Under the pieces are notes generated by a model, which made no database searches, was not told the origin of the DNA, and saw only the letters and a program-made list of their open reading frames with translations. Shown piece by piece: positions 9,060 through 60,473 of a stretch of DNA of 64,000 bases. The stretch covers positions 1 through 64,000 of IMG/VR virus record IMGVR_UViG_3300011114_000911. One strand, written 5' to 3'. The DNA comes from a virus. Made by a program: the position numbers and the translations under genes. The first letter of the stretch is position 1; each line of letters begins with the position of its first letter.

Positions 9060-9416
9060 ATGAGTCATTTTGCAAAAGTAGAAAATGGTATTGTCACCCA
9101 AGTGATAGTTATAGAACAGGATGTTCTCACCACAGGACTTTGGGGCGATCCTGCTGCCTGGGTGCAAACCAGTTACAACACGTATGGTGGGCAACACCAG
9201 CTGGGCGGAACACCACTGAGAAAAAATTATGCTGGTGTGGGTTACATTTACGACCAAAATCTAGATGCATTTTATGCACCCAAACCTTATGCCAGCTGGA
9301 TCTTGGACGAAGCCACCTGCATATGGCAAGCACCCAAATCCATGCCAACTGACGATAAAAACTACTACTGGGACGAACCCACTGTGTCTTGGAAAGTAGT
9401 GGTTGCAACGCCATGA
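9060..9416 (+). CDS. small conserved T4-like phage structural-type protein
   Basis: 118 residues beginning MSHFAKVENGIVTQVIV. Proteins with this opening and the following pattern (WVQTSYNTYGG, NYAGVGYIYD, AFYAPKPYASW, then a Trp-rich end) recur among structural and fibre genes of T4-like phages of aquatic bacteria, in my recollection; their function is unknown. The late box and SD in front indicate expression with virion genes. The ATG of the next gene overlaps its stop (ATGA). Confidence 0.7.
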   Translation: MSHFAKVENGIVTQVIVIEQDVLTTGLWGDPAAWVQTSYNTYGGQHQLGGTPLRKNYAGVGYIYDQNLDAFYAPKPYASWILDEATCIWQAPKSMPTDDKNYYWDEPTVSWKVVVATP

Positions 9417-10183
9417 ATTCAGTGCTGATTGCTGGATGCAGTTTTGCAGGAATAGCAGCAGGATATTCAAATCCAGCGCCCAACATCAATCGCACACGAT
9501 TTAAATTCTTTGATGCACCAGCAGCCGGCAACAGAGCTATTGCTGCTCGTGTGCGATACGAACTGTTCAGAGGCTCATATGATCATGTGATTGTACTTTG
9601 GTCGGGTATAAATCGTATAGATGTACCAGTCACGCTAAAAACACATATTAGAACGCCCAGCAATTACCGATACATATCAGTAATGGAAGAATGGGCATGG
9701 TACCATTCTGGAGGCATGGCTGGCAGTTGGCAGTCAGATGATGTGTGTCCAGCTGCAATAAAATCTCAATTTCGTGAAGAATATCTAAATCAAACTGCTA
9801 GGTCGGCCACAGACACAACCTTAGCGGCCATTATAGACACACAAGATTTATTAAAATCTTGCAAAATTGACTATACCATGTGTTTTATCTACGACATAAA
9901 TCAAAGTTACAATGACACAGTAGACAAAGTGACCAACACCAAATATCGTACCATTGGATTTGATCGCTGGCCACAATGGTTGGCCTTGGAGCATTGTTTG
10001 GGCAAAATTGACCCCACATCAAGTCTGTACAACATGGTCGACTGGGGAAAATTTAACAAAGTCACTCCGCCTTATGAATACTGTGTCAAGCAAAATCTAC
10101 AACAAATTGACAAGTTTCATCCTAGCTCTTTTGGCATGGCAGAATGGTTTGAAACACAATTGGGTATTGATTTAACCAGTTGA
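9413..10183 (+). CDS. SGNH/GDSL-hydrolase-like protein
   Basis: 256 residues. SGNH blocks are visible: GCSF near residue 7 (nucleophile Ser), PAAGNRA (Gly), LWSGINR (Asn), and KFHPSSFG near the C-terminus (His). SGNH enzymes remove acyl groups from glycans, lipids or other esters; the substrate here is unknown. The start at 9413 overlaps the previous stop as ATGA, like many genes here. It is one of five SGNH-like proteins in the window (see also 26744, 50814, 53503, 57323). Confidence 0.65.
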   Translation: MNSVLIAGCSFAGIAAGYSNPAPNINRTRFKFFDAPAAGNRAIAARVRYELFRGSYDHVIVLWSGINRIDVPVTLKTHIRTPSNYRYISVMEEWAWYHSGGMAGSWQSDDVCPAAIKSQFREEYLNQTARSATDTTLAAIIDTQDLLKSCKIDYTMCFIYDINQSYNDTVDKVTNTKYRTIGFDRWPQWLALEHCLGKIDPTSSLYNMVDWGKFNKVTPPYEYCVKQNLQQIDKFHPSSFGMAEWFETQLGIDLTS

Positions 10184-25013: not shown

Positions 25014-26162
25014 ATGACCAATTTCTACTGTGCTGCACCCTGGCGCGGCTTGCATATCAATCCTCAAGGCAATGTTAAAACTTGTTGTGCCGGCAATCCC
25101 AACATGCTGGGCAATTTGAACAGCCAGACCATTGAGCAGATACTGAACAGCAATCTCATGACAGAAATACGTGCCAGTTTGGCACAAGGTCAGCCGCACG
25201 ACTATTGTTCCAATTGTGTTCGAGCTGAACGCTTTGGAGCAGACTCTGAACGGCAATGGCACAACAACGTGAATCCCAATTTTGATTATGCCACTGCTGG
25301 CAACCAATATCATTATCCTGTGATAGTAGATGTACGTTGGAACACCACATGCAATCTAAGTTGTAATTATTGCGGCGAATCATGCAGTTCAAAATGGGCC
25401 AGTATCAAAGGAATTCCATTCAAATCTGGTGCTCGTCCCTACTACGATTCAGTCTGCGACTTTATTGAACAGCACTATGAACACATACACGAGGTGGCCT
25501 TGGTTGGTGGAGAACCACTGTTGTTGCCAGAAAATGATCGGCTACTAGATGTCATACCCCAGGATGCCATTGTCACACTAATCACAAACTTGAATGTGGA
25601 TCTAGACAAAAACAAAATATTTCAAAAATTATCCAAACGAAACCGGGTGGGCTGGTCAATGAGTTTTGATAACACTGGTGAACAACTGGAGTATGTGCGT
25701 CACGGAGCCAGTTGGTCGTTGATCAAAGAAAATCTTGCCAAGATCAAACACTTGATGACCACACAAGGCCATTGGGGTGGTATACATGCAGTGTACAACA
25801 TGTACAATGCCACACGTATTTGTGAACTAAGACAATTTGCCGAACAAACTAAAACCACAGTGCTATGGCAAAACTTGTTTCAACCTGAATACCTTGATCC
25901 ATTCTTGCACGGTGCAGCAGTTGCTCAAGCAGCAATTGCAGAGATTGAAAGATTCTATGCCATGAACATTGCTACACCTGCTGAACGTCAGTTTTTTGAC
26001 AATGCACTAACCACTTATCACAATAGATTGAGTGTGGATAAAATTAGCAAAATTGACACAGACTTTTGGCGTCATGTGCATAACAATGAAACCAAATATC
26101 ATCCAGACAAAGCTGGCGAGTTTCAGCGCCTATGGCCGGAGTTGGCATTCTTATGCAAATAA
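25014..26162 (+). CDS. radical SAM protein, twitch-domain type
   Basis: 382 residues. The radical SAM cluster motif CNLSCNYC lies at residues 113-120, followed by the GGEP loop (VGGEPLL). An N-terminal Cys-rich part (C6, CC at 24-25, CSNC at 65-68) looks like a twitch/SPASM-type auxiliary cluster domain placed before the barrel. Such enzymes modify peptides, sugars or other small molecules; the target is unknown. It overlaps the downstream oxygenase-like gene by 10 nt, so the two may act together. A second, distinct family member is at 59478. Confidence 0.82.
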   Translation: MTNFYCAAPWRGLHINPQGNVKTCCAGNPNMLGNLNSQTIEQILNSNLMTEIRASLAQGQPHDYCSNCVRAERFGADSERQWHNNVNPNFDYATAGNQYHYPVIVDVRWNTTCNLSCNYCGESCSSKWASIKGIPFKSGARPYYDSVCDFIEQHYEHIHEVALVGGEPLLLPENDRLLDVIPQDAIVTLITNLNVDLDKNKIFQKLSKRNRVGWSMSFDNTGEQLEYVRHGASWSLIKENLAKIKHLMTTQGHWGGIHAVYNMYNATRICELRQFAEQTKTTVLWQNLFQPEYLDPFLHGAAVAQAAIAEIERFYAMNIATPAERQFFDNALTTYHNRLSVDKISKIDTDFWRHVHNNETKYHPDKAGEFQRLWPELAFLCK

Positions 26163-48484: not shown

Positions 48485-49351
48485 ATGGTTAATAAACATC
48501 TTATTATTTTGCTAGGCCACAGTGGCAGTATGGAATTAAAATTCCGTATTAGATCAACTGCGTTAGCAGAATTATGGCTTGAACGGATGCAACAAAGGCA
48601 TCAATATCCATTGGATCATCCGGACAGATTTTACGGATTTAATGATCCGGCCAAAGAAAGATCTCGTGCGGTAAACATGATACAAAACTGTATTGATATC
48701 ATAAACAACCACAAACGCATAATTGATCGTGAGTTTGAATACACACAAGACTGTCTCAACTACCTGCATAATATATTTGAAAAATATCATGGGTTGTTAG
48801 ACCAACAAACATCAGATTATTGGATGACAGCACCAAATGATGTTAGGACAGCATTGGCTGATTTAAATTTAGCAGTACATAGATGCGAGCATGCTACAAA
48901 GTCAAATACTCAGCGTATAGTGTGTACTTGGTATGGCTTGCCTAAAACACATTACTTGTCGGCTGAACTACAACGCGAATATGGGGAGACCACTATTAAA
49001 TTTGGTACAGTATATCTTAACTATTGTGAGATAGGCAAAACAGTTGAAGACTTAACATTTGATAATGACACATACATAAGCGACCAAGCATTTCGACCAT
49101 TCAGTCATTACAGTGCCGATTTTAAGATAGCATTTTATGATCGAGACAGTACAGAAAACTATCTACAAATACAAAACTATATTGAGCAACACAGTGATTT
49201 TTTTCTTGCAAAAGGAATCACAAGTGTGTATAATATACAAGCACAACCACTTTATTTTCCTGTGGCAGATCTAGAATCGTCTGTAGATCAAACACACTTG
49301 ATTCAACAAATAAGCACCCAACAGTTTGTGCGTGAAATAAAAATACAATGA
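48485..49351 (+). CDS. conserved unknown protein upstream of uvsW
   Basis: 288 residues if translated from the promoter-proximal ATG 48485; ATG 48530 (MELKFRIRSTALAELWLERM) would give 273 and looks like a natural protein start, so the start is unsettled. Contents: YPLDHPDRFYGF, DCLNYLHNIFEKYHGLLD, ALADLNLAVHRCE, IVCTWYGLPKTHYL, YLNYCEIGKTVEDL. I recall similar unknown proteins from aquatic T4-like phages. No catalytic motif. Overlaps uvsW by 4 nt. Confidence 0.68.
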   Translation: MVNKHLIILLGHSGSMELKFRIRSTALAELWLERMQQRHQYPLDHPDRFYGFNDPAKERSRAVNMIQNCIDIINNHKRIIDREFEYTQDCLNYLHNIFEKYHGLLDQQTSDYWMTAPNDVRTALADLNLAVHRCEHATKSNTQRIVCTWYGLPKTHYLSAELQREYGETTIKFGTVYLNYCEIGKTVEDLTFDNDTYISDQAFRPFSHYSADFKIAFYDRDSTENYLQIQNYIEQHSDFFLAKGITSVYNIQAQPLYFPVADLESSVDQTHLIQQISTQQFVREIKIQ

Positions 49352-50817
49352 AACTAGCAACAATACAAATCAATGACGAAGTGAACATCAAAATTGAAGG
49401 ACTTGATCTTGATGCTCGCAAAGCCTTGGTCAAGTCATTCAAATATGATATTCCGTATGCAAGATATTTGCCGGCAGTACGGCTGGGTCGCTGGGATGGC
49501 AAGGTATCTTACTTCCAACTGGGCGGCAGCACATATATCAATTTGTTGCCGGATATTATTCCTTTGTTGGAACGATTTGATTACGACATTGAACTGGACG
49601 ACCGCAGAGAATACTCAACTACATTTGAGTTTGCTCAGGTAACGGAACAAAGTTATGCAAACAAAGCATGGCCTGAGAACCATCCTGCAGCAGGCCAACC
49701 AATCTTGTTGCGTGACTACCAGGTGGAGATCATCAACAACTTCTTGACCAATCCACAATGCATACAAGAAGTGGCCACGGGTGCAGGCAAAACCATAATG
49801 ACAGCAGCACTCAGCGACGCAGTCAGTGCATATGGTCGTAGCATAGTGATTGTGCCCAACAAGAGTCTGGTTACACAAACAGAAAAAGACTACATCAACA
49901 TGGACCTGGATGTGGGTGTGTATTTCGGAGACAGAAAAGAATACGGTCGAACACACACCATCTGCACCTGGCAAAGTCTAAACAATCTTATGAAGAACAC
50001 CAAGAACGGCGTAGGCGATTGCACCATTCAAGAGTTCATTGAAGGTGTGGTGTGTGTGATAGTGGATGAAGTACACATGGCCAAAGCAGATGCACTAAAA
50101 ACTTTACTCACAGGTGTAATGGCTAGAGTGCCAATTCGCTGGGGCTTGACTGGAACAGTGCCCAAAGAACTGTTTGAAAGTCAGGCCTTGCTGGTCAGCC
50201 TAGGCCCAGTTATCAGCAGACTGTCTGCAAGCACATTGCAGGACGCTGGTGTTTTAGCCAATTGTCATGTGAACATAGTGCAATTGGTAGATCATGTGGA
50301 ATACGCTGACTATCAAGCGGAACTAAAATATCTTCTTGAAGAATCTGGCCGCCTGGATACCATGGCAACGTTGATACAACAAGTTAACGAAACAGGCAAT
50401 ACTTTGGTCTTGGTAGATCGAACTGAATGTGGTCGACAGCTTGTGGAACGACTGGGTGAACATGCCGTGTTTGTTTCTGGAGCCACTAAAGCCAAAGTAC
50501 GTCAGGAAGAATATGATGAGATTGCTGTGAGCGACGGCAAGATCATCGTGGCCACATATGGTGTGGCTGCTGTGGGCATCAACATTCCGCGGATCTTTAA
50601 TCTGGTGCTGATTGAACCTGGCAAGAGTTTTGTGCGAGTGATACAAAGCATCGGGCGCGGCATCCGCAAAGCCGAAGACAAAGATCATGTGCAGATATGG
50701 GATATTACTAGTACGTGCAAATTTGCTCGCAGACACCTAAACAAACGCAAGGTGTTTTACAAAGAAGCCAATTATCCATTTACTGCTGAGAAACTGGAAT
50801 GGATGAAGATAAAATGA
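49348..50817 (+). CDS. uvsW: UvsW-like SF2 helicase
   Basis: 489 residues (T4 UvsW 503). Motif I VATGAGKT (about 142-149), DEVH (239-243), GLTGT, FVSGATKAK, and motif VI QSIGRGIRKA (433-442). The N-terminal 100 residues match the UvsW DNA-binding part (YLPAVRLGRWDGKVSYF). UvsW unwinds branched DNA and R-loops and promotes the switch to recombination-dependent replication. ATGA overlap with both the preceding gene and the next. Confidence 0.93.
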   Translation: MKLATIQINDEVNIKIEGLDLDARKALVKSFKYDIPYARYLPAVRLGRWDGKVSYFQLGGSTYINLLPDIIPLLERFDYDIELDDRREYSTTFEFAQVTEQSYANKAWPENHPAAGQPILLRDYQVEIINNFLTNPQCIQEVATGAGKTIMTAALSDAVSAYGRSIVIVPNKSLVTQTEKDYINMDLDVGVYFGDRKEYGRTHTICTWQSLNNLMKNTKNGVGDCTIQEFIEGVVCVIVDEVHMAKADALKTLLTGVMARVPIRWGLTGTVPKELFESQALLVSLGPVISRLSASTLQDAGVLANCHVNIVQLVDHVEYADYQAELKYLLEESGRLDTMATLIQQVNETGNTLVLVDRTECGRQLVERLGEHAVFVSGATKAKVRQEEYDEIAVSDGKIIVATYGVAAVGINIPRIFNLVLIEPGKSFVRVIQSIGRGIRKAEDKDHVQIWDITSTCKFARRHLNKRKVFYKEANYPFTAEKLEWMKIK

Positions 50818-51554
50818 AATTTGATATAATAGTGTGTGGTGACAGTTTTAGTTCGGCAACCAGCAATGCTAGAGATCATTACAGCCAAATATTGCAAGAT
50901 CAATATGGATATTCGGTATTGTGTTTGGCAAGGTCTTCTATGGACAATCTTGGCATTGCCTGGCAAATGCGAGAAGCAGTTGAAATCGGATGTAGATTTT
51001 TATTGTACCACAGCACCTGGAGCAGCCGGTTGAACTTGTTAGTAAATGACAATTTTCAAGTTGAAAAAGGATTGAAAAATTTCATATATCCATTCACGGA
51101 TGATGAAAGTTCCTACACCACTTATGTTGGCCACAACCCAATTTGCACATCCTCCAATGGAGTACAAACTCCCGACAATGACGCACCCATACTGAGTACA
51201 GTGCCACAAGGACTTGAAACCAGTCCTACTTTGATAATTACCAAAGATCAACACCGAGCCATTGAATACCATTTTAAATATTTTTTTAACGAAGCATTGT
51301 ATCAAGAAGTTGACTCTTGGATTCTGGCGCATTGGCATCATCAAGCAGAAAAATCAGGAATTGTTCCAATAGACATGAAACTGTCACTGGGTCGTGCCAT
51401 GTTTGATTATCAAATGCAAGGCAAGATGGTAGGTGATACTTATGTCATGCACCCAGATTACAATGACGATCGACCTTTTCACACAGATCAGGCCACTCAG
51501 CAAAAAGTAGCAGATGCTGTGCATGCGGAAATAATAAAACTGTCAAAGACTTGA
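50814..51554 (+). CDS. SGNH-hydrolase-like protein
   Basis: 246 residues from ATG 50814 (ATGA overlap with uvsW). FDIIVCGDSFSS has the GDS(F) nucleophile block, LARSSMDNLG follows, LLYHSTWSSRLN sits where the block III Asn region belongs, and RPFHTDQATQQKVADA carries the terminal His. Unknown substrate. It is inserted after uvsW in the replication region, an odd place for an esterase. AT-rich relative to uvsW. Confidence 0.55.
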   Translation: MKFDIIVCGDSFSSATSNARDHYSQILQDQYGYSVLCLARSSMDNLGIAWQMREAVEIGCRFLLYHSTWSSRLNLLVNDNFQVEKGLKNFIYPFTDDESSYTTYVGHNPICTSSNGVQTPDNDAPILSTVPQGLETSPTLIITKDQHRAIEYHFKYFFNEALYQEVDSWILAHWHHQAEKSGIVPIDMKLSLGRAMFDYQMQGKMVGDTYVMHPDYNDDRPFHTDQATQQKVADAVHAEIIKLSKT

Positions 51555-52088: not shown

Positions 52089-52387
52089 TGGGACAACTAA
52101 AGCCTGGCGCAACCCTTGTTTACGAACGTGTTGGCAACACAGTGTATTCTCGCGAATCTGGTGCTGATCCCAGCACACGAACAGAAATAGGATATGACTA
52201 CGAAACATTTGAAGAACGTAGAGACCATGACATCAGAGCAGGAATGAGACAACGACATGAAGCCTTGCAGGAGGCCAAACTGTGGGGTGACATTCGCAGA
52301 GAAGCCAAAACCAATCCCACTTTACACGATGCCTTGGAAAATGCTATAATGATCTATCATCTGACCAAAACAACCAAAGCAACATGA
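52088..52387 (+). CDS. small conserved unknown protein
   Basis: 99 residues. MGQLKPGATLVYERVGNTVYSRE and IGYDYETFEERRD, then a basic helix. Coupled by TAATG to the gene in front and overlapping the next by 4 nt. It appears to be part of a fixed gene set; function unknown. Confidence 0.62.
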   Translation: MGQLKPGATLVYERVGNTVYSRESGADPSTRTEIGYDYETFEERRDHDIRAGMRQRHEALQEAKLWGDIRREAKTNPTLHDALENAIMIYHLTKTTKAT

Positions 52388-52830
52388 GCGATAAACTAAA
52401 CATCAACAACGAGATGCGGCAACTGGATGCAAAGAATCGTGCATTTTATGATGAGCTTACCTCAGAGGAACGAAAGAAATTCAGTACCTATCTCATGATA
52501 CGTTGGGGCAGTGCAGTTGGCGGCAGCAGACAACTACAAGAATACTACGTGCAGAGTACCAATCACTATTTGAACAAAAACTTCTTTGACATAGCCAAGC
52601 ATACCAAACTACAATGGCTGTGTGCAACTGCTGCCAGCCCCGGCATGGGAGTGATGAGGCACAACTGGATAGCGCCCAAGAAAAAAGAAGCAGGACTCAG
52701 TGCCAAGCGACGAGCGTTGATGGCAATCTTTCCCACATACAAAGATGATGAGATTGACGTGATGGCACAGCTGGTCACACAAAAAGAAATAGATAGTTAC
52801 AACCGAGCCAGTGGCAACGACAAAAAATGA
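52384..52830 (+). CDS. conserved unknown protein, weak gp62 clamp-loader resemblance
   Basis: 148 residues, helical. KKFSTYLMIRWGSAV, LQEYYVQSTNHYLNK and HTKLQWLCATAASPG with RHNWIAPK follow, in a loose way, the order of blocks in the small clamp-loader subunit gp62 of T4-like phages (a FMVNR-type helix, a YANxMN-type helix, a KRxxKW end). The match is by eye only, and gp44 was not found beside it, so I treat it as unknown. Confidence 0.5.
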   Translation: MSDKLNINNEMRQLDAKNRAFYDELTSEERKKFSTYLMIRWGSAVGGSRQLQEYYVQSTNHYLNKNFFDIAKHTKLQWLCATAASPGMGVMRHNWIAPKKKEAGLSAKRRALMAIFPTYKDDEIDVMAQLVTQKEIDSYNRASGNDKK

Positions 52831-53501
52831 CATTCACTTGCGGATACTGTGAAAAAACTTTCTCAAGAGAAAGCAGTATAGAAGTACACATGTGCGAACC
52901 CAAACGTCGCAGGCTGCAACGCGGCGATAGAGGAGTACAACTGGCATTGCAGGCCTATGTGAGGTTTTACGAAACCATGCAAGGTTCAGCCAAGAACAAA
53001 ACATTTGAAGATTTTGAAACGTCATCCTACTATCGTGCGTTTGTGAAGTTTGGTCATTACTGTGTGAACACTCGCGTGATCAATCCTGAACGATTCATGG
53101 CCTGGCTGCTGAAACAACAAAAAAAAATTGATCGTTGGTGCAGCGATCAAGTGTATACTGAATACTTGGTAAATTATCTCACACTGGAAGCAGTGGATGA
53201 TGCGCTAGCACGAGCCATGGAATACGGATTAGACTGGGCTGAAAAAACCAATAACCCTGCACATGATTGTTTGCGTTATGGCAATGCCAATGTGATATGC
53301 CATGCCATAACCACTGGACGAATCAGCCCTTGGGTGATTTACAGTTCAGAGTCTGGGCAGAAGTTTTTGAGTGAGCTAGGTACGGAACAAGTGGCCATGA
53401 TTTGGATGTATATTGATTCAGACGTTTGGCAGAAAAAATTTCAAACATATCCCACAGATCACGAGTACGCACAGGAAATGTTGAAACAGGCAGGATGGTA
53501 A
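52827..53501 (+). CDS. conserved phage protein with N-terminal zinc finger
   Basis: 224 residues. An N-terminal C2H2-like finger (FTCGYCEKTFSRESSIEVHMCE) precedes an all-helical region with GVQLALQAYVRFYETMQGSA, YYRAFVKFGHYCVNTRVI, GRISPWVIYSSESGQKFL and a terminal EYAQEMLKQAGW. I recall close relatives in T4-like cyanophages, where it is unassigned. Nucleic-acid binding is likely from the finger. Overlaps the previous gene by 4 nt. Confidence 0.72.
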   Translation: MTFTCGYCEKTFSRESSIEVHMCEPKRRRLQRGDRGVQLALQAYVRFYETMQGSAKNKTFEDFETSSYYRAFVKFGHYCVNTRVINPERFMAWLLKQQKKIDRWCSDQVYTEYLVNYLTLEAVDDALARAMEYGLDWAEKTNNPAHDCLRYGNANVICHAITTGRISPWVIYSSESGQKFLSELGTEQVAMIWMYIDSDVWQKKFQTYPTDHEYAQEMLKQAGW

Positions 53502-53502
53502 A

Positions 53503-54282
53503 ATGAGTACATCGCATACGATGATCTATTGCAATGGAGACAGTTACAGTAATCCGAAATATCGTCCCACAATGCAGGACAAAACATATGATTATGTAGT
53601 CAATGAACATCTGCCCGGATATGTTATGAATCGTGCTATATCTGGCAGTTGCAATCGTAGAATTATCAGGACCACGGTTCATGACATGATTCAACAAAGA
53701 CAGTTAAATCCTCAACAAAAAACAATTGCGTTGATTGGGCTAACTTTTGAGATTAGATCAGAGTTATGGATAGACAATAGCCAGCCATTGAAATCTGAAG
53801 AAAGCAATTTTGGCACTCATGTGTTTAGTAATCAACTGAACTGGAGAGAAACACTACTGCAAGGATTTTTCCAGGATGCTAAGAATCCACATCTGTTAGA
53901 AGAAAAGTTCTACAAAAAATATACCGAGGGGCGAGCTTATTTTTATAGTCCGTATGCTGAGCGTATAAATTTATTTTGTGATCTAATCATGTTGAAATCA
54001 TTATTGGATCGACTTGATATTAATTTTTTAGTGTTTAATTGTGTAACTCCAGAAAAGTTAGATTCTGACTATTTGTTAGATTTCTTTCGAAATGAGATAG
54101 TAAATGATCCTCGATTTATTGATCTTGATAACTTTGGATTTTGTAGCTGGAGCAATCAACAAGGATTTGTTCCTTTTGATTTTATTGATCGGCCAGGAAT
54201 AGGTCACTATCAAGCAGATGCACATCGATCGTTTGCTGAAAAAATATTATTACCAACAATAAAAAAATTGAATTTGATATGA
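53503..54282 (+). CDS. SGNH-hydrolase-like protein
   Basis: 259 residues, AT-rich. MIYCNGDSYSNP (Ser block), ISGSCNRRI (Gly/Asn block), ALIGLTFEIR, and GHYQADAHRSFAEKI with Asp/His at the end. It starts 1 nt after the previous stop and its stop overlaps the DnaE-like gene (ATGA). Substrate unknown. Confidence 0.55.
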   Translation: MSTSHTMIYCNGDSYSNPKYRPTMQDKTYDYVVNEHLPGYVMNRAISGSCNRRIIRTTVHDMIQQRQLNPQQKTIALIGLTFEIRSELWIDNSQPLKSEESNFGTHVFSNQLNWRETLLQGFFQDAKNPHLLEEKFYKKYTEGRAYFYSPYAERINLFCDLIMLKSLLDRLDINFLVFNCVTPEKLDSDYLLDFFRNEIVNDPRFIDLDNFGFCSWSNQQGFVPFDFIDRPGIGHYQADAHRSFAEKILLPTIKKLNLI

Positions 54283-54857
54283 GTGCAGATATTGACATTG
54301 ATTTTGCCGACAGAGAACATGTGCTGAAGCTGATACAGCACACACCTGCACGGCAACTGTATCAAGGCACAGCAAGAAAACACAATTCGGGTGTGTATGT
54401 GACTGACATTCCACTGGATCCTGTGTTAGGATGCGCTGCCTTGGATTACGAAACAGCCGAATCACGTGGCTACTTCAAGATTGACTTGTTGAACATGAGT
54501 GTGTACGGACTGGTAAAAGATCCTGCACACTACGAACTGATGTCGACAGCAGAGCCACCATGGGCAAAATTGTGGACAGATCCAGCCTGGGCAAGCCAAC
54601 TGGTTCACGTGGGAAATTACACTGAACTACTAAGGACCATGCAGCCCAACTCAATTCCTAGAATGGCAGCATTCATATCTGTGATACGTCCAGGCAAGGC
54701 ACACCTGCAGAATAAGCCGTGGTCAGAGGTGTTTGACTCAGTATGGGATGGTGATCTTGGTCGGGGATATGTGTTTAAGAAAGCTCATGCACTTGGTTAC
54801 GCAGCCTTGGTTGCACTACACATGAATCTACTTACTCAAGTCGGCGAACCAGCATAA
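54279..54857 (+). CDS. miniature DnaE (C-family DNA polymerase) palm-like protein
   Basis: 192 residues. Landmarks of bacterial PolIII alpha appear in order: ADIDIDFADR (D4, D6; DnaE PDxDxDF, two catalytic Asp), RKHNSGVYVT (34-42; DnaE HAAGVVIS), GYFKIDLLNM (D69; DnaE VKFDFLGL, third Asp), MQPNSIPRMAAFISVIRPG (121-139) and FKKAHALGYA (166-175; DnaE FNKSHSAAYA). PHP, thumb and the rest of full DnaE (over 1000 residues) are missing. Activity is uncertain; it may be a degenerate or repurposed polymerase core. It overlaps the SGNH gene (ATGA) and, by 26 nt, the convergent next gene. Confidence 0.75.
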   Translation: MSADIDIDFADREHVLKLIQHTPARQLYQGTARKHNSGVYVTDIPLDPVLGCAALDYETAESRGYFKIDLLNMSVYGLVKDPAHYELMSTAEPPWAKLWTDPAWASQLVHVGNYTELLRTMQPNSIPRMAAFISVIRPGKAHLQNKPWSEVFDSVWDGDLGRGYVFKKAHALGYAALVALHMNLLTQVGEPA

Positions 54858-55209
54858 TACTTTTTCGTTTGCTTTTTTTGCGGGCTATGTCCAACAAACT
54901 GCAAGCAGGGCCATGCAAGATTTCTAGGTCTTTGTTGACAAACGTGCGTAATGTGTAGCGAAATTGTTCCCAATCTTTACGCAGAAATATGTTTATGGGA
55001 ATGGATCTATTGCTTTCCCACCACCAAACAGATGCCAACTCCAGGTAATTCAGTTTGTCAGCTTGATCTGCCACTGCACCAAAGTCGTAGATGGTGGTGA
55101 CCACATCATCTTTGTTCTGTATCACACCCACATATTCAGCATTGGCATACATGCACAAGCTGATAAATGGATATTTCTCAGTTAATTTTTCGAAAACATT
55201 ATTGCCCAT
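54832..55209 (-). CDS. conserved unknown phage protein
   Basis: 125 residues: NNVFEKLTEKYPFISLCMYANAEY, VGVIQNKDDVVTTIYDFG, WWWESNRSIPINIFLRKDW, then HGPACSLLDIARKKSK. A compact alpha/beta protein of a type I recall in T4-like phages of aquatic bacteria; role unknown. CATAAATA precedes the ATG by 7 nt, giving late and leaderless expression on the strand opposite to its neighbours. Confidence 0.68.
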   Translation of the reverse strand: MGNNVFEKLTEKYPFISLCMYANAEYVGVIQNKDDVVTTIYDFGAVADQADKLNYLELASVWWWESNRSIPINIFLRKDWEQFRYTLRTFVNKDLEILHGPACSLLDIARKKSKRKSIMLVRRLE

Positions 55210-56361: not shown

Positions 56362-57336
56362 ATGCTAGACATCCTACAATATTTGCCAGCAAAACGAAAA
56401 GCCACACCATCAGGTTGGGTAAGTTTCAATGCTGTGTGTTGTCAACACAATGCTGGTACAGCAGATAAACGTGGTCGAGGAGGTCTCAAACCCACAGAAT
56501 CGGGTTGGAGTTATCACTGCTTCAACTGCAACTACACCGCTAGCTTTATCCTTGGCCGTACAGTGAGTTTTAAGGCCCGCAGGCTCTTGGGCTGGTTAGG
56601 TGTGCCCGATGCTGAGATCGACATATTAAACTTAGAAAGTCTAAGACATCGCAGTGTGCATGGCATCCTGGATGACCGACAACGTATGTTTAATGTGCTG
56701 TCTGGCATAGAGTTTGAAGAAAGAGAATTGCCGCCAATGAGTGAGTTATTGGATGATTCATATGAACGTCGAGAGTATCTTCGTTCAAGAAAAGTGCCCG
56801 ATGACTATCCTGTGATGGTACAGCTTCACGAAGAAAGGTCTTGGAAAAATCGTCCCAGTGTAATTATTCCATTCACACACAATGATCGCATAGTGGGGTA
56901 CTCACAAAGATTCTTGGATAACCGGCGACCCAAGTACATCACTGACAGCCAACCTGGATATGTGTTTGGAACAGATTTGCAGCACGACAATTGGACCAAT
57001 GCAATTGTTGTTGAAGGCATATTTGATGCACTGTGCATTGGTGGCTTGGCAGTGATGCATAACACCATATCAGATGAGCAGGCACGGTTGATCCGTAGTT
57101 TAGGCAAAGAAATAACCGTGGTACCTGATCAGGACTTGGCAGGTATGGAACTGGTAGATCGTGCAGTAGAACTGGGATGGGCGGTGAGTATGCCGCCGTG
57201 GCCAGATGATGTCAAAGATGTCAACGACAGTGTGGTTCGTTATGGTCAGTTGGCAACCATGCTAACTATATTTGAAAACAGAAACACTAGTCGAATCAAA
57301 ATAGAAATGAGGAAAAAACAAATTGTCAAACGATGA
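56362..57336 (+). CDS. 61: DNA primase gp61-like
   Basis: 324 residues (T4 gp61 342). N-terminal zinc-binding part: CCQH (26-29) with CFNC (53-56). TOPRIM core: IVVEGIFDAL (Glu near 218) and VVPDQDLAGMEL (Asp pair near 256-258), then WPDDVKDVND. It makes RNA primers at the fork with the helicase gp41, encoded downstream. The next gene begins at TTG inside its end. Confidence 0.88.
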   Translation: MLDILQYLPAKRKATPSGWVSFNAVCCQHNAGTADKRGRGGLKPTESGWSYHCFNCNYTASFILGRTVSFKARRLLGWLGVPDAEIDILNLESLRHRSVHGILDDRQRMFNVLSGIEFEERELPPMSELLDDSYERREYLRSRKVPDDYPVMVQLHEERSWKNRPSVIIPFTHNDRIVGYSQRFLDNRRPKYITDSQPGYVFGTDLQHDNWTNAIVVEGIFDALCIGGLAVMHNTISDEQARLIRSLGKEITVVPDQDLAGMELVDRAVELGWAVSMPPWPDDVKDVNDSVVRYGQLATMLTIFENRNTSRIKIEMRKKQIVKR

Positions 57337-58036
57337 AGTTCACATTCTTATTTGTGGTGATAGTTTTTGTGTGACCGACCCTGACTTTCCAGGATTGCAT
57401 TGGTCAGAGAAAATATCAAATTACTCGCCGAATTTTAAAATTTCTAATCTAGCCTACGGGGGCAGCAGCAATGCATTGATTTCATTGCAAATGATGCAAG
57501 GAATGAAGTTAAATCCTGATTTTGTAATATTTTCTTTTACCAATCCGCTTCGATATGAATTTGACAATGACACCGCTGTGCTGCCTCGATCCTTTAGTGA
57601 CCTAGATATTGCAGATTATATCAAAAAACGTTATACTACTACTTGTTATTTTGAAAACAAAGAAAAAATAAAAACAACTGATCATTGGTTAGCCTCTGCA
57701 GCCTCAATAAACATGGAGATGATAAAAAATTACATGTACTTGGTGTTGTGTCTGACTACCTGTGCAACAAACAAAATACCATTTTGCTATAGTACTGGTG
57801 GATTTCTTGATAATATTGGACAGCTAACAAATTCTAACTATATAAAAAATCTTGCCAACGATTATCAAGAGCAAGCATTAATGACAAATCTGTGGAATCA
57901 TCGAACCACCCATAAAAACGCCGGGCATCTTAATGGGTCCAATACTAGACCGTACTTTCACATCAGCGATGACGCTGTACAAAGTTTGTTTGCTAACGAG
58001 TGCATTGATCATATTGTAAGGAAAAAATCTTGTTAA
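57323..58036 (+). CDS. SGNH-hydrolase-like protein
   Basis: 237 residues from TTG 57323 (GAGG 10 nt upstream; no ATG is available before the GDSF block). VHILICGDSFCV (Ser), AYGGSSNALIS (Gly/Asn), VIFSFTNPLRYEF (Asn), and a C-terminal HKNAGHLNG region with candidate His. AT-rich, wedged between primase and helicase and overlapping both, which interrupts the usual T4 pairing. Substrate unknown. Confidence 0.58.
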   Translation: MSNDEVHILICGDSFCVTDPDFPGLHWSEKISNYSPNFKISNLAYGGSSNALISLQMMQGMKLNPDFVIFSFTNPLRYEFDNDTAVLPRSFSDLDIADYIKKRYTTTCYFENKEKIKTTDHWLASAASINMEMIKNYMYLVLCLTTCATNKIPFCYSTGGFLDNIGQLTNSNYIKNLANDYQEQALMTNLWNHRTTHKNAGHLNGSNTRPYFHISDDAVQSLFANECIDHIVRKKSC

Positions 58037-59478
58037 AAGAATACGGAATTGATATACAGAAATTATTCCTGGAAATGATGTTGGAGGATGCTGCCAGCTA
58101 TGTGCGTGTGCAGAACATTTACAATCCAGAAAACTTTGATCGAAATCTTAGACCAGCGGCTGCGTTTATTAAAGAACACAGTGAAAAACACAAAACTCTG
58201 CCAGATATCACGCAGATCTCAGCCACCACTGGAATCAAATTACAATCAGTGCCTGATTTGAATGAAGGGCACTATGAATGGTTCATGGAAGAATTTGAAG
58301 CATTCACACGCAGACAAGAACTAGAACGTGCGATCTTGGCAGCAGCAGACCTGTTGGAAAAAGGTGAATATGGTCCTGTGGAAAAACTGATCAAAGATGC
58401 AGTGCAGATCAGCTTGACCAAGGACATGGGCACAGACTATTTTGCCAATCCCAGCGAACGTATCAACAAGTATTTTAACTCGGGTGGGCAAGTCAGCACA
58501 GGCTGGCCACAACTGGATCGATTGTTGTACGGTGGATTCAGTCGTGGTGAACTGAACATCTTTGCCGGAGGATCAGGATCAGGCAAGAGCTTGGTCATGA
58601 TGAACATTGCACTCAATTGGTTGCAGCAAGGATTGAGCGGAGTGTATGTTACCTTGGAATTGAGTGAAGACTTGACCAGCTTGAGAACAGATGCCATGCT
58701 CACAAACATGAGCACCAAAGACATACGCAGAGACATCGATACCACAGAGCTCAAAGTCAAAATGATGGCCAAGAAGTCGGGCAACTACCAAGTGAAAGGT
58801 TTGCCAGCACAAAGCAACATCAATGACATTAGATCGTACTTGAAAGAGTATCAAATACAAACAGGCAAACGGGTAGACTTTGTGATGATTGATTACCTAG
58901 ACTTGCTGATGCCAATCAGCGTCAAAGTCAATCCCAATGACCAGTTTATCAAAGACAAGTATGTGAGTGAAGAACTACGTAACTTGGCCAAAGAACTGCA
59001 AATATTAATGGTAACTGCAAGTCAATTGAATCGCAGCGCAGTGGAAGAAGTAGAATTTGATCACAGTCACATTGCAGGCGGTATTTCAAAGATCAACACA
59101 GCAGACAATGTGTTTGGTATCTTTACCAGCAGATCAATGAAAGAACGTGGCAAGTATCAGATACAATGCATGAAAAGTCGTAGTTCGACTGGTGTGGGAC
59201 AAAAGATTGATTTGGAATACAACATTGAGACCATGCGTATCACAGACGAGGGCGGCGACGAAGGAACTGGTTATAACAAACCGCAAACATCAATCATGGA
59301 CTCAATCAAGGCCAAGAGTCAGGTTGTTGCCAGCGACAATGCTGCTTGGCAAGCGCCTGTAGGTGGCACACACGCCTGGGACAAACCAGTGGTCAATCAC
59401 GGAGACGTTGCCAAAGTGGTTGGTGTAGTAGAAAGCACCAAACTCAATCAATTGCTGAAAACTATTAAAACGTCATAA
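58030..59478 (+). CDS. 41: replicative helicase gp41 (DnaB-like)
   Basis: 482 residues (T4 gp41 475) from TTG 58030, with AAGGA upstream. STGWPQLDRLLYGGFSRGEL, Walker A GGSGSGKS (180-187), GVYVTLELSEDLT (H1a region), VDFVMIDYLDLL (Walker B), LMVTASQLNRSA and IQCMKSRSSTGVG (Arg finger region). The hexamer unwinds duplex at the fork and binds gp61. Coupled to the SGNH gene in front (8-nt overlap) and the radical SAM gene behind (TAATG). Confidence 0.92.
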   Translation: MLKEYGIDIQKLFLEMMLEDAASYVRVQNIYNPENFDRNLRPAAAFIKEHSEKHKTLPDITQISATTGIKLQSVPDLNEGHYEWFMEEFEAFTRRQELERAILAAADLLEKGEYGPVEKLIKDAVQISLTKDMGTDYFANPSERINKYFNSGGQVSTGWPQLDRLLYGGFSRGELNIFAGGSGSGKSLVMMNIALNWLQQGLSGVYVTLELSEDLTSLRTDAMLTNMSTKDIRRDIDTTELKVKMMAKKSGNYQVKGLPAQSNINDIRSYLKEYQIQTGKRVDFVMIDYLDLLMPISVKVNPNDQFIKDKYVSEELRNLAKELQILMVTASQLNRSAVEEVEFDHSHIAGGISKINTADNVFGIFTSRSMKERGKYQIQCMKSRSSTGVGQKIDLEYNIETMRITDEGGDEGTGYNKPQTSIMDSIKAKSQVVASDNAAWQAPVGGTHAWDKPVVNHGDVAKVVGVVESTKLNQLLKTIKTS

Positions 59479-60473
59479 TGACATGCATTGACATTTATAA
59501 AAATATAAACATTGTGGCTCAGCAAAATGCATTAGCAATTTCGCCTTGTTGTATATCTCCTGTACGCTCAGCTGAAGTAATTGATTTTTTAAACAACAAA
59601 TACCTTGTTGGTCTTCGCAATGAGATATCTACTGGACAGTTACCAACAGCGTGTAGTAATTGTAAAGATGCCGAAGCTGCTGGACTAACAAGCCGACGGC
59701 AAGGCAGCAACTCTTGGTATAAAGACCACAATCTTAACAACAACAAGGTTGAGCTAATTCGTATGGATTACTGGACTGGCGATACATGTAATTTGGCCTG
59801 TGTAATATGCGGGCCGAATAACAGTAGTGTGTGGAAACAAGAACTTGGGCTACCTATAGAATTACAAAAATCAACGGCCAATCAGTTTTGGAAAACCATC
59901 GACTTGAGCAGCATACAATTTATACATTTCAATGGCGGTGAACCGTTGCTGAGTAAAGAACATGTGAAATTGTTACATGCAATTGAGCACAAAGATCAAG
60001 TACACTTAAATTACAACACCAATGGGACTATATTACCAAATAAAGAGTTGTTGAATTTGTGGGAGCAATTTAAGTTAGTGCAACTTGATTTTAGTATTGA
60101 TGATGTTGGTGAAAGATTTGAATACCAACGGTTCCCTGCAAAGTGGGCTCAGGTGACAGATAATTTGCAATGGTATATTGATAATGCGCCGCACAATTGT
60201 ATGTTTGCTACCAATACCTCAGTTGGCATACTAAATTCCGACAATCTTAAACAGTTAGAAGAGTGGCTGCAAACAAATTTCCACACCACGCGATTTACAG
60301 ATCCTATAGAACACCGACAACAATTAACAAATGGGGTGTTCGCTCTTAAAGATACAGACAACAGAAAATCTAAAATAATTGCTACCTTGGATTCTATTGA
60401 TCAACGACGAGGCACAGATTGGCGTGCTGTATTCCCAGAACTGTTTCAGCAGATGTTCAAAATGCAAAACTAA
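59478..60473 (+). CDS. radical SAM protein, twitch-like, second member
   Basis: 331 residues. ISPCCIS and ACSNCKDAEAAG as N-terminal Cys cluster region, MDYWTGDTCNLACVICGP with C104, C108, C111, and IHFNGGEPLL. The layout is the same as the protein at 25014, but the sequences differ, so they were probably acquired separately. It has AT-rich composition and follows gp41 by TAATG. Likely modifies a peptide or small molecule; target unknown. Confidence 0.8.
   Translation: MTCIDIYKNINIVAQQNALAISPCCISPVRSAEVIDFLNNKYLVGLRNEISTGQLPTACSNCKDAEAAGLTSRRQGSNSWYKDHNLNNNKVELIRMDYWTGDTCNLACVICGPNNSSVWKQELGLPIELQKSTANQFWKTIDLSSIQFIHFNGGEPLLSKEHVKLLHAIEHKDQVHLNYNTNGTILPNKELLNLWEQFKLVQLDFSIDDVGERFEYQRFPAKWAQVTDNLQWYIDNAPHNCMFATNTSVGILNSDNLKQLEEWLQTNFHTTRFTDPIEHRQQLTNGVFALKDTDNRKSKIIATLDSIDQRRGTDWRAVFPELFQQMFKMQN

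What the first reader, a model, noticed from the sequence alone, without database searches (positions are those of the whole stretch)
54279..54857. A 192-residue protein with the ordered catalytic landmarks of bacterial replicase DnaE
T4-like phages replicate with a B-family polymerase, yet this gene keeps five DnaE landmarks in the right order: PDxDxDF-like DIDIDF, HAAGV-like HNSGV, KFDFLGL-like KIDLLNM, the RPG block, and FNKSHSAAYA-like FKKAHALGYA. The three aspartates that bind metal in C-family polymerases (D4, D6, D69) are present. The rest of DnaE is gone. It could be a minimal polymerase, a decoy for the host clamp or fork, or a nucleotide-binding regulator. The aspartates argue against simple decay.
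Basis: partly seen in the sequence, partly recalled or inferred. Interest (0 to 1): 0.8.

Follow-up and report, generated by a model that had tools for sequence, protein, structure and literature searches.

The report
C-terminal half of split phage polymerase
This small gene of a T4-like giant phage is half of a stripped-down bacterial-type DNA polymerase: it carries the metal-binding half of the active site, and in related phages a separate gene carries the nucleotide-gripping half, so the enzyme should work only when the two proteins meet; a 2021 computational study already described this split polymerase, but no experiment on it was found.

Summary
The ORF at 54279-54857 keeps the DnaE landmarks, which map to E. 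coli D401/D403/D405, H511, K553/D555, RPG639-641 and FNKSHSAAY756-764. The catalytic aspartates are invariant in 154 distinct homologues, dN/dS is about 0.09-0.16, and an AlphaFold2 model (pLDDT 92.8) matches C-family polymerases over its whole length. 'The rest of DnaE is gone' is half wrong. Complete relatives encode a second protein of about 170-200 aa that carries the DnaE Gly-Ser motif and stops just before the aspartate motif. Modelled apart, the two fit E. coli DnaE 279-393 and 398-780: one palm cut in a short loop. All 20 relatives with a large enough record carry exactly one copy of each half, always on the same strand. PHP, thumb and helix-hairpin-helix parts are absent, and the same phages have a B-family polymerase. 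So the protein is most likely the metal- and template-binding subunit of a two-chain minimal Pol III alpha. Iyer et al. (2021) already described this split enzyme in silico, so the window holds a new member of a known kind. The window record is a 74-kb fragment in which the partner and the B-family polymerase were not found. Activity and role are untested.

The parts
54279..54857 (+). C-terminal half of split minimal DNA polymerase III alpha (192 aa; metal- and template-binding half of palm plus fingers)
   Evidence: phrog_11778 E 4e-49; AF2 pLDDT 92.8; VIA fit to DnaE E. coli 398-780, Taq 460-838, PolC 970-1295
54288..54302 (+). D4-I-D6-I-D8, equivalent to E. coli D401/D403/D405; D4 and D6 are metal ligands
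   Evidence: invariant in 154/154 distinct sequences; mapping
54381..54392 (+). H35-N-S-G38, equivalent to E. coli HAGG 511-514
   Evidence: H and G invariant
54477..54485 (+). K67 and D69, equivalent to E. coli K553 and D555 (third metal ligand)
   Evidence: invariant; hmm alignment
54687..54698 (+). R137-P-G-K140, equivalent to E. coli RPG 639-641 of the fingers
   Evidence: R, P, K invariant
54774..54800 (+). F166-K-K-A-H170-A-L-G-Y174 finger helix; H170 = E. coli H760, proposed steric gate
   Evidence: H170 invariant, Y174 153/154; PMC8485763
54832..55209 (-). Convergent ORF (phrog_11637, unknown function) overlapping the 3' end by 26 nt; conserved neighbour
   Evidence: found convergent in 122 of 157 homologous loci with enough flank
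52384..52830 (+). Clamp-loader small subunit (gp62-type) by family: phrog_11758, whose relatives also hit phrog_225 'clamp loader'
   Evidence: relatives L265 and L268 hit phrog_225 at E 3e-6 and 7e-8; upstream in 92 of 117 loci
52827..53501 (+). Conserved upstream neighbour with N-terminal C2H2-like zinc finger (phrog_11058)
   Evidence: upstream in 105 of 117 loci
56362..57336 (+). DNA primase (gp61-like), conserved downstream neighbour
   Evidence: phrog_47 E 6e-32; 48 of 49 loci
58030..59478 (+). DnaB-like replicative helicase (gp41-like), conserved downstream neighbour
   Evidence: phrog_19 E 6e-71; 48 of 49 loci
49348..50817 (+). UvsW-type helicase upstream in the same replication block
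   Evidence: phrog_16 E 2e-70; same order in RaK2 and GAP32

Best explanation
The protein is the C-terminal subunit of a two-chain, minimal C-family DNA polymerase. Shown here: it carries the three metal-binding aspartates on a palm sheet, plus the fingers with the RPG block and the steric-gate helix; relatives encode a separate N-terminal subunit with the helical Gly-Ser (GRGSS) subdomain; the two correspond to adjacent, non-overlapping parts of DnaE; and they are inherited together. Inferred: the subunits bind each other and build the nucleotidyl-transfer site at their interface, the N chain gripping the dNTP triphosphate and this chain supplying the metals, template contacts and sugar check. 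Also inferred: without thumb, PHP, helix-hairpin-helix or beta-clamp parts the enzyme is poorly processive and does short-patch synthesis (gap filling, repair, or finishing primed segments) beside the phage's own B-family replicase, recruited near the clamp loader and primosome encoded around it.
For: Fold and family. Partner: PF07733 finds a second small ORF in every large relative, ending at ..EFL(K/N) within 0-2 residues in 74 of 74 sequences; the partner profile hits DnaE 291-393 at E 2.5e-6, and its model (pLDDT 88.6) fits DnaE 279-393 at Z about 10-11. The C model fits 398-780, so only a 4-residue gap is left, and the same holds on Taq, M. tuberculosis and PolC structures. Co-occurrence: 20 records carry exactly one of each on the same strand; the five with one half only are 74-159 kb virus records that may be fragments. 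Co-inheritance: Mantel r 0.68, 0 of 2000 permutations. Catalytic residues invariant in both halves. dN/dS about 0.09-0.16. Replication neighbourhood. B-family polymerase in all 11 large records tested; no PHP or HhH_6 domain in 14. Same inference published for group 2.2 jumbo phages (PMC7824862).
Against: No complex was modelled and no activity is known. The partner is not in the 74-kb window record, so for this phage it is inferred from relatives. Sequence similarity of this half to solved DnaE is weak by itself (best E 0.007), and Pfam gives nothing. Middling Z values (8.3-9.9) are common for unrelated folds, although here every match above Z 3.1 is a C-family polymerase. Two halves could be co-inherited for a non-polymerase function. 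Part of the GRGS and K67/D69 conservation is ascertained, because search patterns used those stretches.
Confidence: 0.75

Rival explanations
1. The two halves do assemble but form a non-replicative nucleotidyltransferase or a nucleotide sensor (for example an end-adding enzyme or a clamp-loader regulator) rather than a template-directed polymerase.
For: Thumb, PHP and helix-hairpin-helix DNA-binding parts are absent; the phages already have a B-family polymerase.
Against: The fingers with RPG block and steric-gate histidine, needed for template-directed dNTP choice, are retained and invariant.
Confidence: 0.13
2. This protein acts alone as a metal/nucleotide-binding regulator or a decoy for the host clamp or fork.
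For: The C half folds confidently on its own in prediction (pLDDT 92.8).
Against: It lacks the Gly-Ser motif; it is strictly paired with the N half in 20 records on the same strand; HhH_6, which in DnaE precedes the clamp-binding motif, is missing from 14 relatives.
Confidence: 0.07
3. Decaying DnaE fragment left by horizontal transfer.
For: Short compared with DnaE; the CBB authors called the N half truncated (PMC5259590).
Against: Uniform length (about 183-214 aa), invariant catalytic residues and low dN/dS across hundreds of contigs; conserved gene order.
Confidence: 0.01

Closest known systems
Split minimal DNA polymerase III alpha of group 2.2 jumbo phages (Iyer et al. 2021, PMC7824862)
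   Same: Same C-terminal Mg2+/template-binding protein with a separately encoded N-terminal NTP-binding protein, no other Pol III domains, B-family polymerase in the same phages.
   Different: The window is another member, in an uncultured phage fragment. Added here: cut point placed on DnaE structures, quantified co-occurrence and co-inheritance, one lineage with both genes about 5-10 kb apart around the clamp loader, and a 141-kb host phage (Slicko01).
Bacterial DnaE / PolC (C-family replicases)
   Same: Palm and fingers fold, catalytic aspartate triad, RPG block, steric-gate histidine; Gly-Ser motif in the partner.
   Different: Two chains, with no thumb, PHP or helix-hairpin-helix found; about 370 aa in all against 1160 aa.
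Two-ORF DnaE of Cellulophaga phage phiST and Tenacibaculum phage Larrie
   Same: Break at the same joint, between FERFLN and PDxDxD.
   Different: Otherwise full-length DnaE (PHP, fingers, HhH matched), adjacent genes, extra tail on the N ORF that in a Bacteroides phage resembles an intein domain.
Split B-family polymerases (Methanothermobacter PolB; gp43 in some Aeromonas phages), from general knowledge
   Same: A replicative-type polymerase encoded as two polypeptides.
   Different: Different polymerase family and fold; not compared here.

Membership tests
Split minimal Pol III alpha of jumbo phages (Iyer 2021) | Stand-alone protein homologous to the C-terminal Mg2+/template-binding part of Pol III alpha | tested here: met
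Split minimal Pol III alpha of jumbo phages (Iyer 2021) | Separately encoded N-terminal NTP-binding partner in the same genome | tested here: inconclusive
   present in 20 of 20 large relatives; not found in the 74-kb window record, which is a fragment
Split minimal Pol III alpha of jumbo phages (Iyer 2021) | Co-resident B-family DNA polymerase | tested here: inconclusive
   present in 11 of 11 large relatives, no match in the window's fragment
Split minimal Pol III alpha of jumbo phages (Iyer 2021) | No other Pol III alpha domains in the genome | tested here: met
   no PHP or HhH_6 match in 14 relatives; for the window's own record PF07733 gave no match
C-family DNA polymerase (DnaE/PolC) as a single-chain enzyme | Three catalytic aspartates in PDxDxDF and KxDxLG | tested here: met
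C-family DNA polymerase (DnaE/PolC) as a single-chain enzyme | Gly-Ser (GRGS) motif in the same chain | tested here: not met
   absent from this protein, present in the partner
C-family DNA polymerase (DnaE/PolC) as a single-chain enzyme | PHP, thumb, tandem HhH with clamp-binding motif | tested here: not met
   about 105 residues between D405 and H511 in E. coli are 27 here; no PHP or HhH_6 in relatives
C-family DNA polymerase (DnaE/PolC) as a single-chain enzyme | Template-directed dNTP incorporation | not testable with these tools
   needs purified proteins

The most novel reading that the evidence does not exclude
The split is functional, not incidental. The N half is made with the clamp loader genes and the C half with the clamp-loader small subunit and primase-helicase, so an active site forms only where loader and primosome meet, giving a polymerase that is switched on by assembly at primed gaps.
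Probability: 0.1. Interest if true: 0.8.

Novelty: new member of a known kind. Interest (0 to 1): 0.5.

Why it matters
A DNA polymerase whose active site would be shared by two separately encoded small proteins (about 370 aa in all) is close to the smallest C-family enzyme one can imagine. It sits in phages that already carry a B-family replicase. It has been described only in silico in the papers found; the cut point and residue map given here make reconstitution directly testable and show which half of the active site each chain must supply. The same joint is also broken in phages of Bacteroidota with an otherwise full-length DnaE, which suggests a recurrent way to split this enzyme.

Tried and rejected
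Pfam and NCBIfam give nothing for this half, and single-sequence phmmer against PDB only a chance hit. Looked for a fused or unsplit minimal form: none among 171 C-half and 90 N-half ORFs, and no fetched locus held both. Looked for a DnaQ-type exonuclease (PF00929) as an obligate third subunit: only 8 of 18 records pass, and none of the records closest to the window, so rejected as obligate. Considered trans-splicing by an intein as in cyanobacterial DnaE: the halves end at EFL(K/N) and start at M(SA)DIDIDF with no room for intein pieces, so rejected for this family. Searched cellular genomes: 12 hits, all in metagenome-assembled bins, so no good evidence for a cellular copy. VIA-align lists only matches pre-selected by Foldseek. 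A two-chain model was not attempted because the structure tool takes single unchanged proteins.

Full report
What is there. The ORF at 54279-54857 (+) encodes 192 aa and starts with an ATG that overlaps the stop of the upstream gene. It belongs to phrog_11778, 'DNA polymerase' (E 4e-49). Homologues cover at least 80% of the query in 63 phage records, among them PA5oct, RaK2, 121Q, GAP32, Atu_ph07, Phosso, SCTP-2, XacN1 and Slicko01, and at least 587 stretches of IMG/VR encode relatives. The window is part of a 74,250-bp uncultured virus record.

The landmarks. Mapped on E. coli DnaE, D4/D6/D8 are D401/D403/D405, H35 is H511, K67 and D69 are K553 and D555, RPG137-139 is RPG639-641, and H170 is H760. 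Published modelling names D401, D403 and D555 as active-site residues and H760 as the steric gate (PMC8485763). In 154 distinct homologues D4, D6, D8, H35, G38, K67, D69, W95, P123, R137, P138, K140 and H170 are invariant. Some K67/D69 and H170 conservation is ascertained by the search patterns; the DxDxD conservation in the second scan and in the tblastn hits is not. dN/dS against the closer homologues with usable dS is about 0.09-0.16. This rules out decay.

The fold. An AlphaFold2 model from 77 window and viral-contig sequences has mean pLDDT 92.8. The top 13 Foldseek matches in the PDB are all Pol III alpha. VIA-align fits residues 1-190 to E. coli DnaE 398-780, to Taq 460-838 and to PolC 970-1295 at Z 8.3-9.9; the next unrelated match has Z 3.1.

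The missing half. Searching relatives with Pfam PF07733 found a second small ORF in all 11 large records tested, far from the first gene in most. It ends '..GVGRGSSVASYVLFLIGIHRVNSITYELDFDEFLN-stop', which is the DnaE palm up to the loop before PDxDxDF. In 74 sequences it ends 0-2 residues after that point, and G, R, G, S of GRGS are invariant in 70 distinct sequences, partly by ascertainment. Its profile hits DnaE 291-393 at E 2.5e-6 and its family is phrog_11127, 'DNA polymerase'. Its model (pLDDT 88.6) fits E. coli DnaE 279-393. The two halves thus cover DnaE 279-393 and 398-780 without overlap; the same 4-residue gap appears on Taq (296-455 and 460-838), M. tuberculosis (305-413 and 418-808) and PolC (9qrn: 822-964 and 969-1301). 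The helical Gly-Ser subdomain is one chain; the metal-binding sheet and fingers are the other. About 80 N-terminal residues of the partner have no DnaE counterpart in these alignments.

Pairing. In 25 records, 20 have exactly one of each half; the five with a single half are the window record and four other virus records of 111-159 kb that may be incomplete. Slicko01, at 141 kb, has both. In all 20 pairs the genes lie on the same strand. Pairwise distances of the two proteins correlate (Mantel r 0.68, 0 of 2000 permutations), with matching clades; genome phylogeny alone would also produce this, so it shows co-inheritance, not contact.

Neighbourhood. The C half lies downstream of a clamp-loader small-subunit-like gene (phrog_11758; relatives hit phrog_225 at E 7e-8 and 3e-6) and a zinc-finger protein. 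It is upstream of primase (48 of 49 loci) and gp41-type helicase (48 of 49), and convergent with an unknown ORF (122 of 157). The N half lies near the clamp-loader large subunit (phrog_168). In G005, G006, G009 and G010 the two genes are about 5-10 kb apart with the N half upstream and the clamp loader between them. The published description says 'distantly located'; in this lineage they are not.

What it is not. No PHP or HhH_6 domain was found in 14 relatives and the thumb is collapsed (27 residues against about 105). A DnaQ-type exonuclease is present in only some relatives. All 11 large relatives have a B-family polymerase.

Literature. [quoted passage not shown] The CBB paper noted only a truncated alpha subunit (PMC5259590) and said gp62 was missing; the phrog_11758 link suggests a gp62-type protein is present in this family of phages. 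No experimental study was found in the library; subscription journals are mostly not held.

Mechanism, shown and inferred. Shown: complementary halves, conserved catalytic residues on each, pairing, selection. Inferred: heterodimer formation, catalysis, and an auxiliary role beside the B-family enzyme. I put 0.75 on a catalytically competent two-chain polymerase.

A side lead on origin. In Tenacibaculum phage Larrie and Cellulophaga phage phiST an otherwise full-length DnaE is broken into two adjacent ORFs at the same joint. In Bacteroides phage BS-TP1 the C half is elsewhere and the N half's tail hits the Pfam intein-splicing domain weakly (E 9e-4, below the curated cut-off). An intein inserted before PDxDxDF may be one way to make this break; the jumbo-phage halves keep no such tail. 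This is a lead, not a result.

Noticed in passing
L324 (Tenacibaculum phage Larrie) 8146-11726; L327 (Cellulophaga phage phiST) 3998-7598; L328 and L333 (Bacteroides phage BS-TP1); L329 and L332 (MT835494): Otherwise full-length phage DnaE broken into two ORFs exactly at the FERFLN / PDxDxD joint; the N ORFs carry a 50-90 aa tail that in BS-TP1 weakly matches the intein splicing domain (E 9e-4) with an ADELQEGDDI end, possibly a decayed or split intein.
   Followed up: partly
window 52384-52830: phrog_11758 'unknown function' looks like the gp62-type clamp-loader small subunit reported as missing in the relative phage CBB: relatives also match phrog_225.
   Followed up: partly
window 54832-55209 (-): Unknown protein (phrog_11637) convergent with and overlapping the 3' end of the polymerase gene, kept in 122 of 157 loci; a candidate partner or antisense-regulated gene.
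   Followed up: partly
window 9389-10183, 50799-51554, 53503-54282, 57323-58036: Four proteins with an N-terminal GDS(F/Y)- or GCSF-type motif, no Pfam match; the two tested (53503 and 57323) have relatives at the same position in only 3 of 117 and 2 of 49 loci, so they look like recent insertions into the replication block.
   Followed up: partly
window 25014-26162 and 59478-60473: Two radical-SAM proteins (the first with a SPASM domain), unusual cargo for a T4-like phage.
   Followed up: no
N-half proteins, residues 1-80 (L187:3935-4468 and relatives): N-terminal region of about 80 aa of the partner has no counterpart in the DnaE alignments; its role (dimerisation or loader binding) is open.
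   Followed up: no
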